52,763 nt of DNA from Candidatus Termititenax persephonae. Lineage in GTDB: Bacteria > Margulisbacteria > Termititenacia > Termititenacales > Termititenacaceae. Below are positions 26,570 through 52,763 of this stretch, piece by piece. Where the stretch lies: contig BGZO01000005.1 of assembly GCA_003864475.1 (NCBI GenBank), positions 1 through 52,763 of the forward strand, read 5' to 3'. Under the pieces are notes generated by a model. That model was not told the origin of the DNA. It searched no databases and saw only the letters and a list, made by a program, of their open reading frames with translations. The number at the start of each line of letters is the position of its first letter. Position 1 is the first letter of the stretch. A program made the position numbers and the translations under genes.

Positions 26570-27280
26570 TTAGACCCTAGCCAATCGATGAGTTTTTCGC
26601 TGGGCGTTGATTTTCTCATAGACAAAATCTGCGGACAATAAAGGGTCAAGCCGCTGGGCTATTTCCAGATTGGCTAGGCGGTGTTCTTGGCGGCGTTCGT
26701 TTTCCTCGGCGGTTTCTTTGTTGTTTTTGATTCTGATTTTTAAGACTTCCGCGTCAGCCAGATTAGTTTCCTTATAAATCTCCGCGGCCTGCAGGGCATC
26801 TTTTTTAGCCAGCAAATCTTGGACAGAGACGAAAGCAATCGGCGGTCTTTCGCCAAAATAATTAACCTTGGCGTGAGGAGAATTGTTCGTGGCGAGCCTA
26901 GGGTCGCTTTGCCGCAAAATATTGACCGCCAAATCGACAATGGTTTCTTCGGGATGCGCTTTTCGGCGTTCCAGCATTTGCGTAAAACTAATGCTCCTGC
27001 CGTCTTGATTGTATTTTTGAATGATGCCGAGGGCATGTCCGACAACTAAATCCATGATAAGGATTACGTCTTTTTCATTCTGGGCATTGTATTTAGCCAC
27101 CGCGTCGGCAATCTCTTTATGAGTATGGCCATTGAGATATTCCGTGGTGGTCAAGCCGCGTTGCTTAGCTTGATTGGCGGCGGTCAAGGCAACCAAATTT
27201 TCCACAATCTCGCGCTGAGACCGGGTGTTGGCGGCTTGATAATCTTGTATATTTACTGCTTGTAAATTACTGAGGGACAT
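26570..27280 (-). CDS. Unknown helical soluble protein
   Basis: 236 residues, strongly charged and predicted helical, without a signal peptide or membrane segments. The start MSLSNLQAVNIQDYQAANT follows AAAGGA by about 9 bases. Landmarks are HTHKEIADAVAKYNAQNEKD, VNILRQSDPRLATNN and a C-terminal charged helix (NNKETAEENERRQEHRLANL). It was not recognised as a known family. Its codon use is like that of the neighbours. It is divergent from the glycosyltransferase gene and coupled with the membrane protein downstream. Confidence 0.65.
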   Translation of the reverse strand: MSLSNLQAVNIQDYQAANTRSQREIVENLVALTAANQAKQRGLTTTEYLNGHTHKEIADAVAKYNAQNEKDVILIMDLVVGHALGIIQKYNQDGRSISFTQMLERRKAHPEETIVDLAVNILRQSDPRLATNNSPHAKVNYFGERPPIAFVSVQDLLAKKDALQAAEIYKETNLADAEVLKIRIKNNKETAEENERRQEHRLANLEIAQRLDPLLSADFVYEKINAQRKTHRLARV

Positions 27281-27370: not shown

Positions 27371-27395
27371 GTATAAATTTCTGAAAACAGGGTAT
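27371..27395 (+). promoter_or_regulatory. SigB-type promoter of the glycosyltransferase gene
   Basis: GTATAA (27371-27376), 13 bp, GGGTAT (27390-27395). The Bacillus SigB consensus is GTTTAA-N12-15-GGGTAT. It is one of five such sites in the island. The ATG at 27405 lies only 10 bases past the -10, so the transcript would be nearly leaderless for that start. Confidence 0.6.
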
Positions 27396-27476
27396 TATAC
27401 ATATATGTATTTTTGTGGGAAAAATATTGCTTTTGCGAAAGCTGACGGCATGGCTTCTTCGCCCTTTATATTTACT

Positions 27477-27485
27477 GGGGGGGGG
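27477..27485 (+). repeat. G9 homopolymer tract at the 5' end of the glycosyltransferase
   Basis: Nine consecutive G followed by TAA. Reading from ATG 27405 (or 27450) the frame ends at this TAA. One more G, or two fewer, would fuse it to the glycosyltransferase frame. Slippage-prone G tracts of this length are classic phase-variation switches. A sequencing error cannot be excluded. Confidence 0.8.
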
Positions 27486-27589
27486 TAACAACTTCCTCTG
27501 AAGCCTACAAAAATATCACGTTAGACCTAAAACCTAATGTTGAGATACACCCAATACAGCAAAGCATCAATGACTATAGCGCACAAAAT

Positions 27590-29275
27590 GTGCTGCCTAA
27601 GTTGCAGGAAACTTTTTGGGGTTCTCCGGGTAAGAAATTCTGGTCGACAACATTTTTAACAACTTTAGTGAGGAATGTTAGCGTCTTGTCAGCAAGTCTT
27701 GAAGTGTCAAGTAGTATTGTAAGTAAAAATGTTTTTGAAATTTCTCCGCTGATTTGGGGAGTGAGTTTAGGCTCGGCCAGTTTGTCTTCTTTATTGAATT
27801 TAGCTGTCTTAACAGATTTTTTTAGTCCTGCCGCAAACAGAAACGATGTCGAAAAAAGCAAACCCTGGCTGGCTCCTGCGGAGTTGCCGCAAATCACTAT
27901 ACAAATCCCCTGTCGTAATGAGCCGCTGGATGTAGTCCAAAATGGTTCGCTAAAAAGCGCGTTGGCACTCAATTACCCCAAAGACAAATTAACTATTCAG
28001 TTAGTGGACAATAGCGAACAAGGAAAATATGAAGAACTGGCCGCTTATTGTGAGGAACAAGGGGTGCATTTTATTCACCGCGAGGGCCGGGACGGCGGCA
28101 AGGCCAGAAATCTAAATATAGGCTTAGGTTTATGGCCTGTGAACGGACAACGCTATGAGCCGCAAAGTGATCTTTATTTTTTAGTGGACGCGGACATCAC
28201 TTTTGAACCGGACACGCTCCAAAAACTTTTACCAGAATTCAAAGCCAATCCCAGACTGCCTTTTGTGGTTTGTGAGGCGGAGTCCAGCGGCGGTAATTTA
28301 TTTACCGATGCCATAGCCGCGACGCATCTGCCTAGGTTGTACCGCAGAACTAATACCGAGAAATACGGTTTTGCCAATTCCACGGGATTTGGCCTGCTCT
28401 ACAATAGACACGCTTGGAGTGAGATACAGGGCTGGCCGGAAGACAGCATTAGCGAGGACTGGGCGGCCAGTATGACAATCCGCGCCCGTTCGGAATACTG
28501 GACGAAAGGCCACAGAGTGAATTATGTGCGGCTTAGCGATCCCGTGCCGGCCAATCTGGAACGCTATAAAATACAGCAGGCGCGCTGGGTGCAGGGTACC
28601 CTAGAAAATATACGCTGGTATTTATGGCCTTTGCTCAAAGCCAAACATATTCCTTGGAATGAAAAGGTTGATGTGTTTTTCAAGGCTTGGGGTTACCCTC
28701 AGCAGGCAATGGCGCAGGTAATAATACCGCTCATTACTGTGAGCAGCGGTATTAGCGTTATCGACAACTATCTTTTGCTCAATAATGCCTCCGCCTGGCT
28801 GCAATCTCTAAGCAGCGTCGTCAGCCTGTTTATCATACCCTTTGTTTTGCTGGCCGGAGTGCCGATTGTGTTTCTTAAAATTAAGCAAGGTTCGGAATCA
28901 GCCGGGCATTATTTTCGGCATTTATTGACCGGGTCGCTGGCTGGCATCAGCGCCGGATTGGCGATAACGCGCGGAGTCGGGAAAGGTTTGTTCGGTGCCA
29001 AGAACGCGCTGTTTAATGTTACGCCTAAAGGGAATGTTCCCCAAGAAAATGCTTTATTAAGAACATTCCAGAAAAACTGGAAAGAAATTGCCTTTGGTTC
29101 GGGGATAGTGTTGTCCAGTATTTTCTTGCTGCCGGGCTATTTAGGACTGGTAAGTTTTTTCGGGCTGGGTTTTATAATTACGCCATTTATGTCTTTGATA
29201 AAATTCAAAAAATCAGAAAAAACGGATTTTCCAAAACAACAAGAAACTCAAGCGGACAAGCCCCACGATATGTAA
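27590..29275 (+). CDS. Processive family-2 glycosyltransferase (cellulose-synthase-like), possibly phase-off
   Basis: A membrane beta-glycosyltransferase that would polymerise a sugar nucleotide into exported polysaccharide. Motifs in order: IQIPCRNEP, the substrate Asp in LVDNS, DAD in FLVDADITFEPD, EDWAAS (the TED-type acid) and QQARWVQG (the QxxRW motif). Hydrophobic segments precede (about 20-75) and follow (about 365-540) the catalytic domain. The only standard start in this frame is GTG 27590, without a ribosome site. Protein-like sequence extends upstream to the G9 tract, so the true N-terminus probably begins at 27405 in another tract state. The substrate is unknown. A copy of its last 85 bases lies at 33895-33977. 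Confidence 0.8.
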   Translation: MLPKLQETFWGSPGKKFWSTTFLTTLVRNVSVLSASLEVSSSIVSKNVFEISPLIWGVSLGSASLSSLLNLAVLTDFFSPAANRNDVEKSKPWLAPAELPQITIQIPCRNEPLDVVQNGSLKSALALNYPKDKLTIQLVDNSEQGKYEELAAYCEEQGVHFIHREGRDGGKARNLNIGLGLWPVNGQRYEPQSDLYFLVDADITFEPDTLQKLLPEFKANPRLPFVVCEAESSGGNLFTDAIAATHLPRLYRRTNTEKYGFANSTGFGLLYNRHAWSEIQGWPEDSISEDWAASMTIRARSEYWTKGHRVNYVRLSDPVPANLERYKIQQARWVQGTLENIRWYLWPLLKAKHIPWNEKVDVFFKAWGYPQQAMAQVIIPLITVSSGISVIDNYLLLNNASAWLQSLSSVVSLFIIPFVLLAGVPIVFLKIKQGSESAGHYFRHLLTGSLAGISAGLAITRGVGKGLFGAKNALFNVTPKGNVPQENALLRTFQKNWKEIAFGSGIVLSSIFLLPGYLGLVSFFGLGFIITPFMSLIKFKKSEKTDFPKQQETQADKPHDM

Positions 29276-38028: not shown

Positions 38029-38048
38029 GGGGGGGGGGGGGGGGGGGG
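38029..38048 (+). repeat. G20 tract (C20 on the transcribed strand)
   Basis: Twenty G followed by nine T. On the minus strand it lies inside a short frame starting ATGTTAATA, giving a run of prolines. It is extremely prone to slippage, and its exact length in the assembly may be wrong. Confidence 0.85.
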
Positions 38049-38094
38049 TTTTTTTTTATTAACATTTTCTCTTTTTAAATTTCCACCATTTTGT

Positions 38095-38119
38095 ATACCC
38101 TCTTTTTTAAAAATTATAA
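38095..38119 (-). promoter_or_regulatory. SigB-type promoter, proximal unit of the CBM-GH9 leader
   Basis: On the minus strand TTATAA (38119-38114), 13 bp, GGGTAT (38100-38095), followed by GGTGG and an ATG 32-34 bases on. Confidence 0.5.
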
Positions 38120-38154
38120 TTTATTTTGTTTAATTTTTTTTTTTTTTTTTCTCT

Positions 38155-38165
38155 GGGGGGGGGGG
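38155..38165 (+). repeat. G11 tract
   Basis: Eleven G preceded by a 17-T run and CTCT. On the minus strand it is a C11 tract inside the frame that starts ATGAATGATTATTAC, again coding prolines. Confidence 0.85.
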
Positions 38166-38211
38166 TAATTGTTAAGTAATAATCATTCATTTTCAACTCC
38201 TACCATATTGT

Positions 38212-51523: not shown

Positions 51524-51649
51524 ATGGTTAGTGGCCAGACACTCGGACATTCAGATAATCGCGCGGCGGACGCGGGGTTTCCGCGCCGTTCCGGCGTTGT
51601 GTTAAGTAATACTTACCCCCCCCCCCCCCCCCCACAATTTTTGGCTTAG
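51524..51649 (+). CDS. Micro-ORF with a poly-proline (C18) tract
   Basis: 41 codons from ATG 51524, with an ideal AAGGAG 7 bases upstream. It reads MVSGQTLGHSDNRAADAGF, then RRSGVVLSNTY, a run of six prolines, QFLA and stop. With one C fewer the frame would run on to 51740 through the terminator; with one more it would end at 51666. It is not recognised. It could be a real short peptide, a leader, or the front of a tract-controlled gene. Confidence 0.5.
   Translation: MVSGQTLGHSDNRAADAGFPRRSGVVLSNTYPPPPPPQFLA
51616..51633 (+). repeat. C18 homopolymer tract
   Basis: Eighteen C inside the micro-ORF, preceded by ACTTA. The minus-strand tract at 38155 has a similar TTA-A-C context. Confidence 0.9.
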
Positions 51650-51695
51650 GTACGCCAAAAACATAACATATCCTTACGGCGCAATGAACAAATGG

Positions 51696-51728
51696 ACCCG
51701 CCCGGGCCTGGCTCGGGCGGGTTTTTTT
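51696..51728 (+). terminator. Rho-independent terminator
   Basis: CCCGCCCG (51697-51704), a 9-base loop, CGGGCGGG (51714-51721) and seven T. Strong GC stem with a T run, just before the tail-fibre gene. Confidence 0.9.
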
Positions 51729-51769
51729 GCGCTCGGGAGATGAAAAAATAAAACACAGGGGGGCATATC

Positions 51770-52763
51770 ATGGCGAACGCGGGCGACTACAATGACGGCA
51801 CGGACACGGACTTCACGGGGGCGACATACAAAATAAGCACCAACGAGAAAATCTCGGCGGAGGGGATGCGGAACGCCCTGCACACCAAGGAGAAGGTTGC
51901 GAACAAGCAGGTGGACTCCACCGACGCCACGGGGACGCTGACCGCCAGCAGCAGCGACACGTACTACCCGTCGTCCAGGCTGGCGGGGAGAAACCTCGAC
52001 AAGAAAGTGAGCAAGAGCGGGGACACGCTGAGCGGGAGGCTGACCGGGGCGAACCTGAAGGGCGCTTGGATAGACACGTTCACGACGAACACGGCGCTCT
52101 ACGTCCCGCCGAACGACGCCACGGGTTCCGCGGCGCAGGGGGTGCTGTCTTGGCGCACGGCGCAGGGGGACGGGTACGCCATCAACAACCTCAACGGTGA
52201 GAACAGGACGAGGCTGCAGTACGCCACGAGCGCGAACATAACCAGCGGCACGAACACCACGGCAGACGTTCTCACCATCACGGGCGGGGTGGTGTCCTTC
52301 GCGGCATCACCGACCGTGCCGGGCAAGGAGAACCCGGCCTCGGCCAGCAACAAAACGGTCATCGCGACTGAGGCGCAGGTCGCGCTCAAGCAGGACAAGA
52401 TAGCTGCGGCCAGCGGCACGGCGGACGGGCTGATGAGCGCGGCTGACAAGACCAAGCTGAGCGGGATAGCGGAAAACGCCAACAATTACACGCACCCGAC
52501 GGCGACGGAGTACACGTCCGGGCTGTACAAGGTTACGGTGGATGGCCTTGGTCATGTGACGGCGGCCACCGCCGCCACCAAGGCTGACATCACGGCGCTC
52601 GGAATCCCGGGTTCCGACACAACGTACGCGCACCCAACGGCGACGGAGTACACGTCCGGGCTGTACAAGGTTACGGTGGATGGCCTTGGTCATGTGACGG
52701 CGGCCACCGCCGCCACCAAGGCTGACATCACGGCGCTCGGAATCCCGGGTTCCGACACAACGT
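51770..52763 (+). CDS. Phage tail-fibre-like protein (3' end outside window)
   Basis: Open from ATG 51770 to the window edge, 331 codons, with AGGGGGG about 7 bases upstream. It starts MANAGDYNDGTDTDFTGATY, then has KSGDTLSGRLTGANLKG and ADGLMSAADKTKLSGIAENA, and tandem repeats YTHPTATEYTSGLYKV...GLGHVTAATAATKADITALG. These are phrases typical of phage tail-fibre and structural proteins. It is clearly more GC-rich, with fewer T-ending codons, than the rest of the window, so a prophage or laterally acquired origin is likely. The C-terminal part, where host binding or a chaperone domain would be, is missing. Confidence 0.75.
   Translation, partial: MANAGDYNDGTDTDFTGATYKISTNEKISAEGMRNALHTKEKVANKQVDSTDATGTLTASSSDTYYPSSRLAGRNLDKKVSKSGDTLSGRLTGANLKGAWIDTFTTNTALYVPPNDATGSAAQGVLSWRTAQGDGYAINNLNGENRTRLQYATSANITSGTNTTADVLTITGGVVSFAASPTVPGKENPASASNKTVIATEAQVALKQDKIAAASGTADGLMSAADKTKLSGIAENANNYTHPTATEYTSGLYKVTVDGLGHVTAATAATKADITALGIPGSDTTYAHPTATEYTSGLYKVTVDGLGHVTAATAATKADITALGIPGSDTT
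52487..52762 (+). repeat. 138-bp (46-residue) coding tandem repeat at the window end
   Basis: Copy 1 is 52487-52624 and copy 2 is 52625-52762, nearly identical at DNA level. The window stops at the end of copy 2, so more copies may follow. Confidence 0.95.

What the first reader, a model, noticed from the sequence alone, without database searches (positions are those of the whole stretch)
27405..27600. G9 tract appears to switch a processive glycosyltransferase on and off
From ATG 27405 (10 bases after a SigB-type -10) the frame passes ATG 27450 and ends in a TAA right after nine G. With ten G (or seven) it would run straight into the glycosyltransferase frame, which is open and protein-like from the tract onward and otherwise has only a GTG without a ribosome site. 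Poly-G slippage in surface glycosyltransferase genes is a known phase-variation mechanism in Campylobacter and others.
Basis: partly seen in the sequence, partly recalled or inferred. Interest (0 to 1): 0.75.

Follow-up and report, generated by a model that had tools for sequence, protein, structure and literature searches.

The report
Poly-G switch in a symbiont glycosyltransferase
A run of nine G's near the start of a sugar-polymer enzyme gene, in an uncultured termite-gut bacterium, puts the gene out of frame, and relatives carry similar slippery runs at the same place, so the gene is very probably one of a dozen or so in this genome that flip on and off at random.

Summary
ATG 27405 opens a 27-codon frame that ends in TAA right after G9 (27477-27485); a tract of 7, 10 or 13 G would join it to the open glycosyltransferase frame (623 aa). 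The host is a Candidatus Margulisiibacteriota MAG. Four glycosyltransferase genes in three species carry a mononucleotide tract between a short N-terminal leader and the conserved LDLKPxxEIxPIQQSIN stretch: G9 (window), G16, C13 and C14, all assembled out of frame. A fifth homologue, which keeps the window's divergent neighbours, has no tract and is open from the ATG equivalent to 27405. The GTG 27590 codon is GTA or GTT in three of five homologues, so it is not the start. The genome holds 39 G>=9 tracts; several lie near the start of surface-type genes (GT2, methyltransferases, DUF5672, subtilase). This is classic slipped-strand phase variation, apparently unreported for this phylum. Not shown: tract-length mixture in reads, or switching. 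Unexpected extras: 74% of own-genome tracts are followed by TA on the G strand, whichever strand is coding; promoter-leader-tract modules recur before different genes; and the C18 tract at 51.6 kb looks like a phase-variable attenuator.

The parts
27371..27398 (+). candidate promoter: GTATAA (27371-27376), 13 nt, GGGTAT (27390-27395), or a sigma-70-like -10 TATTAT (27393-27398); start codon 6-9 nt downstream, so possibly a leaderless mRNA
   Evidence: consensus only
27405..27476 (+). N-terminal leader MYFCGKNIAFAKADGMASSPFIFT, ATG 27405 (second in-frame ATG 27450)
   Evidence: KNI and neighbouring residues shared with L066, L067 and the tract-free L074
27477..27485 (+). G9 tract; ON at 7, 10 or 13, OFF at 9 as assembled
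27486..27488 (+). TAA stop that ends the OFF frame (27-aa peptide)
27488..29275 (+). glycosyltransferase frame: GT2, cellulose-synthase-like, QxxRW, C-terminal hydrophobic segments; 623 aa from ATG 27405 when in frame
27590..27592 (+). GTG codon, first ATG/GTG/TTG after the tract in the GT frame; rejected as the start
   Evidence: GTA or GTT in three of five homologues

Best explanation
The G9 tract is a slipped-strand contingency switch. Translation starts at ATG 27405 (or 27450), reads a 24-codon leader and meets the tract. When the tract is 7, 10 or 13 G long, the ribosome continues in frame into a membrane-bound, processive-type GT2 glycosyltransferase of 623 aa (ON). At any other length it stops within a few codons of the tract (OFF). 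DNA-polymerase slippage changes the length by +1 or -1 at high frequency, so a clonal population holds both states. The likely result is on/off production of an extracellular or cell-surface polysaccharide. The gene belongs to a larger set of tract-controlled surface-modification genes in this genome. Shown: the frame logic, the equivalent tracts in homologues, the coding conservation on both sides, the tract-free open homologue, and the genome-wide tract set. Inferred: the actual switching, the polymer made, and the benefit (evasion of phage, or changing contact with a protist or spirochaete host).
For: Frame logic. Four homologous GT genes in three species carry tracts between leader and core: G9, G16, C13, C14. 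The tract is on opposite strands in homologues, and in two GT clades (68-80% and 55% identity within each), so it was probably acquired more than once. The tract-free homologue in G007 has the same divergent neighbours as the window and is open from the equivalent ATG. Between tract and GTG 27590, window against L067 differs 10/6/20 at codon positions 1/2/3, with 14 synonymous and 10 non-synonymous codon changes. Other start-proximal tracts in the genome sit on GT2, FkbM methyltransferase, Methyltransf_24, Methyltransf_25, DUF5672 and subtilase genes. Near-identical leader copies in relative G001 differ in tract length (C6, 8, 9, 10, 11), and copies in the own genome range from C12 to C20, showing that tracts vary faster than their flanks. 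Six tracts lie within 30 nt of a contig end against 0.27 expected, as expected if reads differ in length there, though other causes are possible.
Against: No reads or second strain of this species were available, so length mixture at this tract is not shown. G9 is at the short end. All four tract-bearing homologues are assembled OFF (chance of this about 0.2 if one third are ON). L066 has stop codons just after the tract in its GT frame and would need a second change at its A9 run, so that copy may be decaying. A MutS family protein is present, so mismatch repair is probably not absent, unlike in Campylobacter (own knowledge).
Confidence: 0.86

Rival explanations
1. The tract does not switch at the DNA level. 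RNA polymerase (or the ribosome) slips on it, so a fixed OFF-length gene still yields a constant minority of full-length enzyme.
For: All four tract-bearing homologues are assembled out of frame, yet the GT frame stays conserved at the protein level.
Against: Tract length and even tract strand differ between homologues, which a length-tuned recoding site would not tolerate. A tract-free homologue exists. Four OFF out of four is not unusual.
Confidence: 0.06
2. The frame is broken only by an assembly error or a fixed single-base deletion; the gene is an ordinary constitutive gene or a young pseudogene.
For: MAG assembly; tract lengths pile up at 20-22 across the genome, hinting at assembler limits; L066 has extra stops after its tract.
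Against: A G9 run is short for such errors; three further homologues carry longer tracts at the same place; the rest of the gene is intact and under coding constraint.
Confidence: 0.06
3. Translation starts at GTG 27590 (or another downstream codon), and the tract lies in an untranslated region.
For: GTG 27590 is the first conventional start codon in the GT frame after the tract; L066 also has GTG there.
Against: The codon is GTA in L067 and L074 and GTT in L073; protein-level conservation runs upstream through LDLKPxxEIxPIQQSIN; L074 is continuously open from the upstream ATG.
Confidence: 0.02

Closest known systems
Poly-G/poly-C contingency loci of Campylobacter jejuni (e.g. wlaN/cj1139, cj1144, cj1420-cj1437 of NCTC11168)
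   Same: Mononucleotide G/C tracts inside surface-glycan genes; +/-1 changes toggle the frame; dozens per small genome (29 tracts of 7 or more in NCTC11168, PMC4965091; here 39 of 9 or more in 1.83 Mb); glycosyltransferases are targets in both.
   Different: Different phylum, uncultured; tracts here reach 20-22 as assembled; strong TA bias on the 3' side of the G strand; leaders shared between different genes; in C. jejuni the flanking sequence was reported not to affect slippage (PMC4965091). Switching not measured here (C. jejuni cj1426: about 2e-2, PMC8437040).
Processive GT2 synthases (BcsA cellulose synthase and relatives)
   Same: Pfam GT2 families, sequence match to BcsA, conserved D, DxD-type, ED and QxxRW motifs, C-terminal hydrophobic segments.
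   Different: No PilZ hit in the Pfam scan, no bcs operon seen next to it; product unknown; close relatives found only in the same family of this phylum.
Phase-variable attenuator of the Streptococcus gallolyticus pil1 pilus (PMC3894217)
   Same: Applies to the second tract at 51.6 kb, not to the glycosyltransferase: leader ORF, repeat tract, intrinsic terminator, and one reading frame that runs through the terminator.
   Different: Mononucleotide C tract instead of GCAGA repeats; at least five complete copies in one genome; untested.

Membership tests
Slipped-strand (simple sequence repeat) contingency locus | Repeat tract longer than composition predicts | tested here: met
   runs of 7-8 rare, 39 tracts of 9 or more in the genome; G9 alone is modest (0.2 expected in the window), homologues have 13-16
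Slipped-strand (simple sequence repeat) contingency locus | One-unit change moves an intact gene in or out of frame | tested here: met
Slipped-strand (simple sequence repeat) contingency locus | Tract upstream of, and in translation continuity with, the functional domain | tested here: met
   leader and post-tract coding conserved, tract-free homologue open throughout
Slipped-strand (simple sequence repeat) contingency locus | Tract length varies between cells or strains | tested here: inconclusive
   Varies between species (9/16/13/14) and between near-identical leader copies elsewhere (C6-C11); no reads for this tract
Slipped-strand (simple sequence repeat) contingency locus | Reversible change of expression or phenotype | not testable with these tools
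   needs reads, RNA, protein or cells
Processive GT2 glycosyltransferase (cellulose-synthase-like) | GT2 catalytic domain with D, DxD, ED and QxxRW | tested here: met
   VDNS, VDAD (D-x-D), SEDW, QQARW in the window protein, the key residues conserved in the alignment
Processive GT2 glycosyltransferase (cellulose-synthase-like) | Membrane-embedded synthase with channel helices | tested here: inconclusive
   hydrophobic segments visible in sequence; the AlphaFold model is too poor to use (mean pLDDT 36)
Processive GT2 glycosyltransferase (cellulose-synthase-like) | Known polymer product | not testable with these tools
   enzymology required

The most novel reading that the evidence does not exclude
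In this bacterial family the G/C tracts are not just slippage products of ordinary G-runs. They are installed next to TA, or moved between genes, as part of small portable switch modules: promoter, short leader ORF ending in TTA, then a C tract, often followed by a 25-bp palindrome. A repeat-associated or recombination process would keep equipping genes with on/off switches. The glycosyltransferase, with its tract on either strand in different homologues, would be one recipient.
Probability: 0.2. Interest if true: 0.82.

Novelty: new member of a known kind. Interest (0 to 1): 0.55.

Why it matters
It shows by comparative genomics that an uncultured, host-associated lineage (Ca. Margulisiibacteriota, termite gut) very probably runs a Campylobacter-scale set of poly-G/C switches on surface-glycan genes. 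No report of this turned up in the papers searched. It predicts cell-to-cell surface variation in a bacterium that lives among protists, spirochaetes and phages, and this can be tested directly on existing metagenome reads. The non-random flanks and the shared leader modules make the rarely addressed question of how new contingency loci arise testable by comparing related species.

Tried and rejected
GTG 27590 as start: rejected. Loss of mismatch repair as the cause of tract abundance: a MutS family protein is present in the own genome and most relatives. Literature: no paper linking Margulisbacteria or Termititenax with phase variation by tracts. AlphaFold of the GT gave an unusable model, so no fold search was made. 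Rfam on the window found only a tRNA, so the palindrome and leader repeats are not known RNA families. The sigma-70 scan did not support a plus-strand promoter at 27390; the SigB-like reading rests on eye and three-species conservation. Poly-G sequencing artefact (dark cycles of two-colour machines, own knowledge): rejected for internal tracts, which sit at equivalent positions in different species and have unique flanks on both sides; it could contribute to tracts at contig ends.

Full report
Observation. The sequence is as described: ATG 27405, in-frame ATG 27450, nine G at 27477-27485 and TAA at 27486-27488. The glycosyltransferase (GT) frame is open from 27488 to 29272 and contains no ATG, GTG or TTG before GTG 27590. 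In-silico length changes show that G7 and G10 join the leader to the GT frame and the other lengths tested stop early. In the window, G or C runs of seven or eight are absent while runs of 9, 11, 18 and 20 occur. The whole genome (1.83 Mb, 201 contigs) has 39 distinct G>=9 tracts. Outside the family most genomes of the phylum have far fewer, although some have up to 27.

Host. The closest homologues of the GT are in 'Candidatus Margulisiibacteriota bacterium' MAGs (Gx481_bin108, Kf353_bin111, Pcl387_bin129). That these are termite-gut bins is my reading of the bin names and of the lineage (own knowledge).

The comparative test. L066 (81% identical over the match) has G16, L067 (68%) has C13, and a 44% paralogue in the same genome as L066 (L073) has C14, all between a short leader and the conserved LDLKPxxEIxPIQQSIN stretch. 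The assembled lengths are out of frame in all four; C14 for L067 and C13 or C16 for L073 would be in frame. In L066 the GT frame has stop codons just after the tract, so a second change at its A9 run would also be needed: that copy may be decaying or may use two tracts. A fifth homologue (L074/L072, genome G007, split over two contigs) has no tract. It starts MFILCWKNIIYKEK, which aligns with MYFCGKNIAFAKAD, MNIFCFKNITYTEI and MQLYRKNISFTEA, and runs open into the enzyme. Its upstream divergent neighbours match the window's 26570-27280 and 26123-26569 genes (35% and 42% identity). This locates the true start upstream of the tract and suggests that a tract-free gene is a viable state. The codon at GTG 27590 is GTA or GTT in three of five homologues. 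Between the tract and GTG 27590, differences between window and L067 fall 10/6/20 on codon positions 1/2/3, so the region is translated.

The tract is G-sense in the window and L066 but C-sense in L067 and L073, and the genes form two clades (window/L066/L067 and L073/G007; identities). At least two, probably three, separate acquisitions or replacements of a tract at one gene position are the simplest reading. This is what selection for a switch would give.

The enzyme. Pfam GT2 families (E down to 2.6e-12), a sequence match to bacterial cellulose synthases and the D, DxD, ED and QxxRW motifs conserved across homologues indicate a processive-type GT2. The polymer is unknown. It is found in four of the eight family-level genomes searched and in none of the 87 other genomes searched at E 1e-30.

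The wider set. Allowing one base more or less, other tracts near gene starts connect to long frames. Their products include GT2 (C22), an FkbM methyltransferase (C20), a Methyltransf_24 protein (C20), a weak Methyltransf_25 match (G10), a DUF5672 protein (G19), a subtilase-domain surface protein (G21) and a transglutaminase-like protein (C13). This resembles the targets in C. jejuni, whose strain NCTC11168 has 29 poly-G/C tracts of seven or more (PMC4965091; PMC8437040). Lengths of 20-22 pile up and may be lower bounds set by the assembler.

Mechanism and limits. The best explanation is slipped-strand phase variation of translation of the GT. Shown: anatomy, position-equivalent tracts, coding conservation, tract-free orthologue. 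Inferred: length change in living cells, polymer, ecological role. No reads could be examined, and no second genome of this species was found. Indirect support for instability is that near-identical leader copies in G001 have C6, C8, C9, C10 and C11, repeat copies in the own genome have C12-C20, and six tracts lie within 30 nt of a contig end against 0.27 expected.

Unexpected features of the tract class. (1) In the own genome 25 of 34 tracts (74%) are followed by TA on the G strand, against 6-10% for runs of 3-6 G. In the family it is 90 of 193, with 19 for the mirror image; outside the family 49 of 342 (Fisher p about 1e-15). The bias holds whether the gene reads the tract as G or as C, so it is not explained by a need for stop codons. 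Some tracts belong to one repeat family and are not independent, but those with unrelated flanks show the same trend. (2) A family-wide dispersed 25-bp palindrome (TTTTTGGCGTACCTAAGCCAAAAAT and variants) lies within a few bases of nearly every tract where it occurs. (3) A promoter-leader-C-tract module (TATAATTACACYCATGGCAGATAAAGACAAAATTGTAACTATTA-Cn) precedes lipoprotein genes in G001 and a methyltransferase gene in the own genome, with homology ending at the tract. These observations leave open that tracts are spread or exchanged as modules. I put this at 0.2. The GT itself shows only the TA flank and neither the palindrome nor a shared leader.

Second tract of interest in the window. At 51524-51770 a leader ORF with a good ribosome site runs into C18 (51616-51633), the palindrome and an intrinsic terminator. 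In five complete copies in this genome two frames stop 14-33 nt after the tract, and the third continues to +93 to +141, past the terminator or hairpin region and close to the ATG of the next gene. One copy, L035, lacks a T-run. This is the layout of the S. gallolyticus pil1 attenuator (PMC3894217) with a C tract instead of GCAGA repeats. The copies are homologous, so the shared frame pattern is not five independent observations, and codon-position bias in the leader is weak (28/55/70).

Verdict. It is a new member of a known kind, in a phylum where I found no earlier report, embedded in a tract system with unusual flanks.

Noticed in passing
window 51524-51770 (+); copies L035, L057, L058, L059 and partial L046, L060: Leader ORF (MVSGQTLGHSDNRAADAGFPRRSGVVLSNTY), C18 tract 51616-51633, palindrome 51637-51661, strong intrinsic terminator about 51697-51728, then a gene from ATG 51770 that runs off the contig (weak head-fibre match, E 0.002). 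Only one of three frames reads through the terminator: candidate phase-variable attenuator like S. gallolyticus pil1, repeated at least five times in the genome.
   Followed up: partly
genome-wide; window tracts 27477, 38155, 51616: Long G tracts are followed by TA on the G strand in 74% of cases in this genome (6-10% for short G-runs; 14% outside the family), independent of which strand is coding. No explanation found.
   Followed up: partly
window 51637-51661; L105-L127: A 25-bp palindrome (TTTTTGGCGTACCTAAGCCAAAAAT and variants) is dispersed in five of six family genomes searched and almost always lies within a few bases of a G/C tract; possible small mobile palindromic repeat.
   Followed up: partly
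L114, L118, L120, L124, L126 (relative G001) and L053 (own genome): Near-identical promoter plus leaderless-looking leader ORF (MADKDKIVTIT and variants) ending in a C tract (C6-C20) stands before lipoprotein genes in G001 and before a Methyltransf_24 gene in the own genome; homology stops at the tract.
   Followed up: partly
window 38029-38190 (-): Two short minus-strand leader-like ORFs, one with C11 followed by A17 (MNDYYLTITPPP...), one with C20 (MLIKKKPPP...); a related leader (M[NP]..YLTVT-P) recurs in other loci (L043, L052, L079, L087, L100).
   Followed up: no
window 29325 (+): The next gene downstream (TPR protein) begins MRIFYCNLNINKINGKPLSL, vaguely like the GT leader MYFCGKNIAFAKADG; a shared N-terminal signal is possible.
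   Followed up: no
contigs C18, C24, C25, C33, C83, C84 of G000: Six tracts lie within 30 nt of contig ends (0.27 expected), and assembled lengths pile up at 20-22, suggesting that tracts break or limit the assembly.
   Followed up: partly
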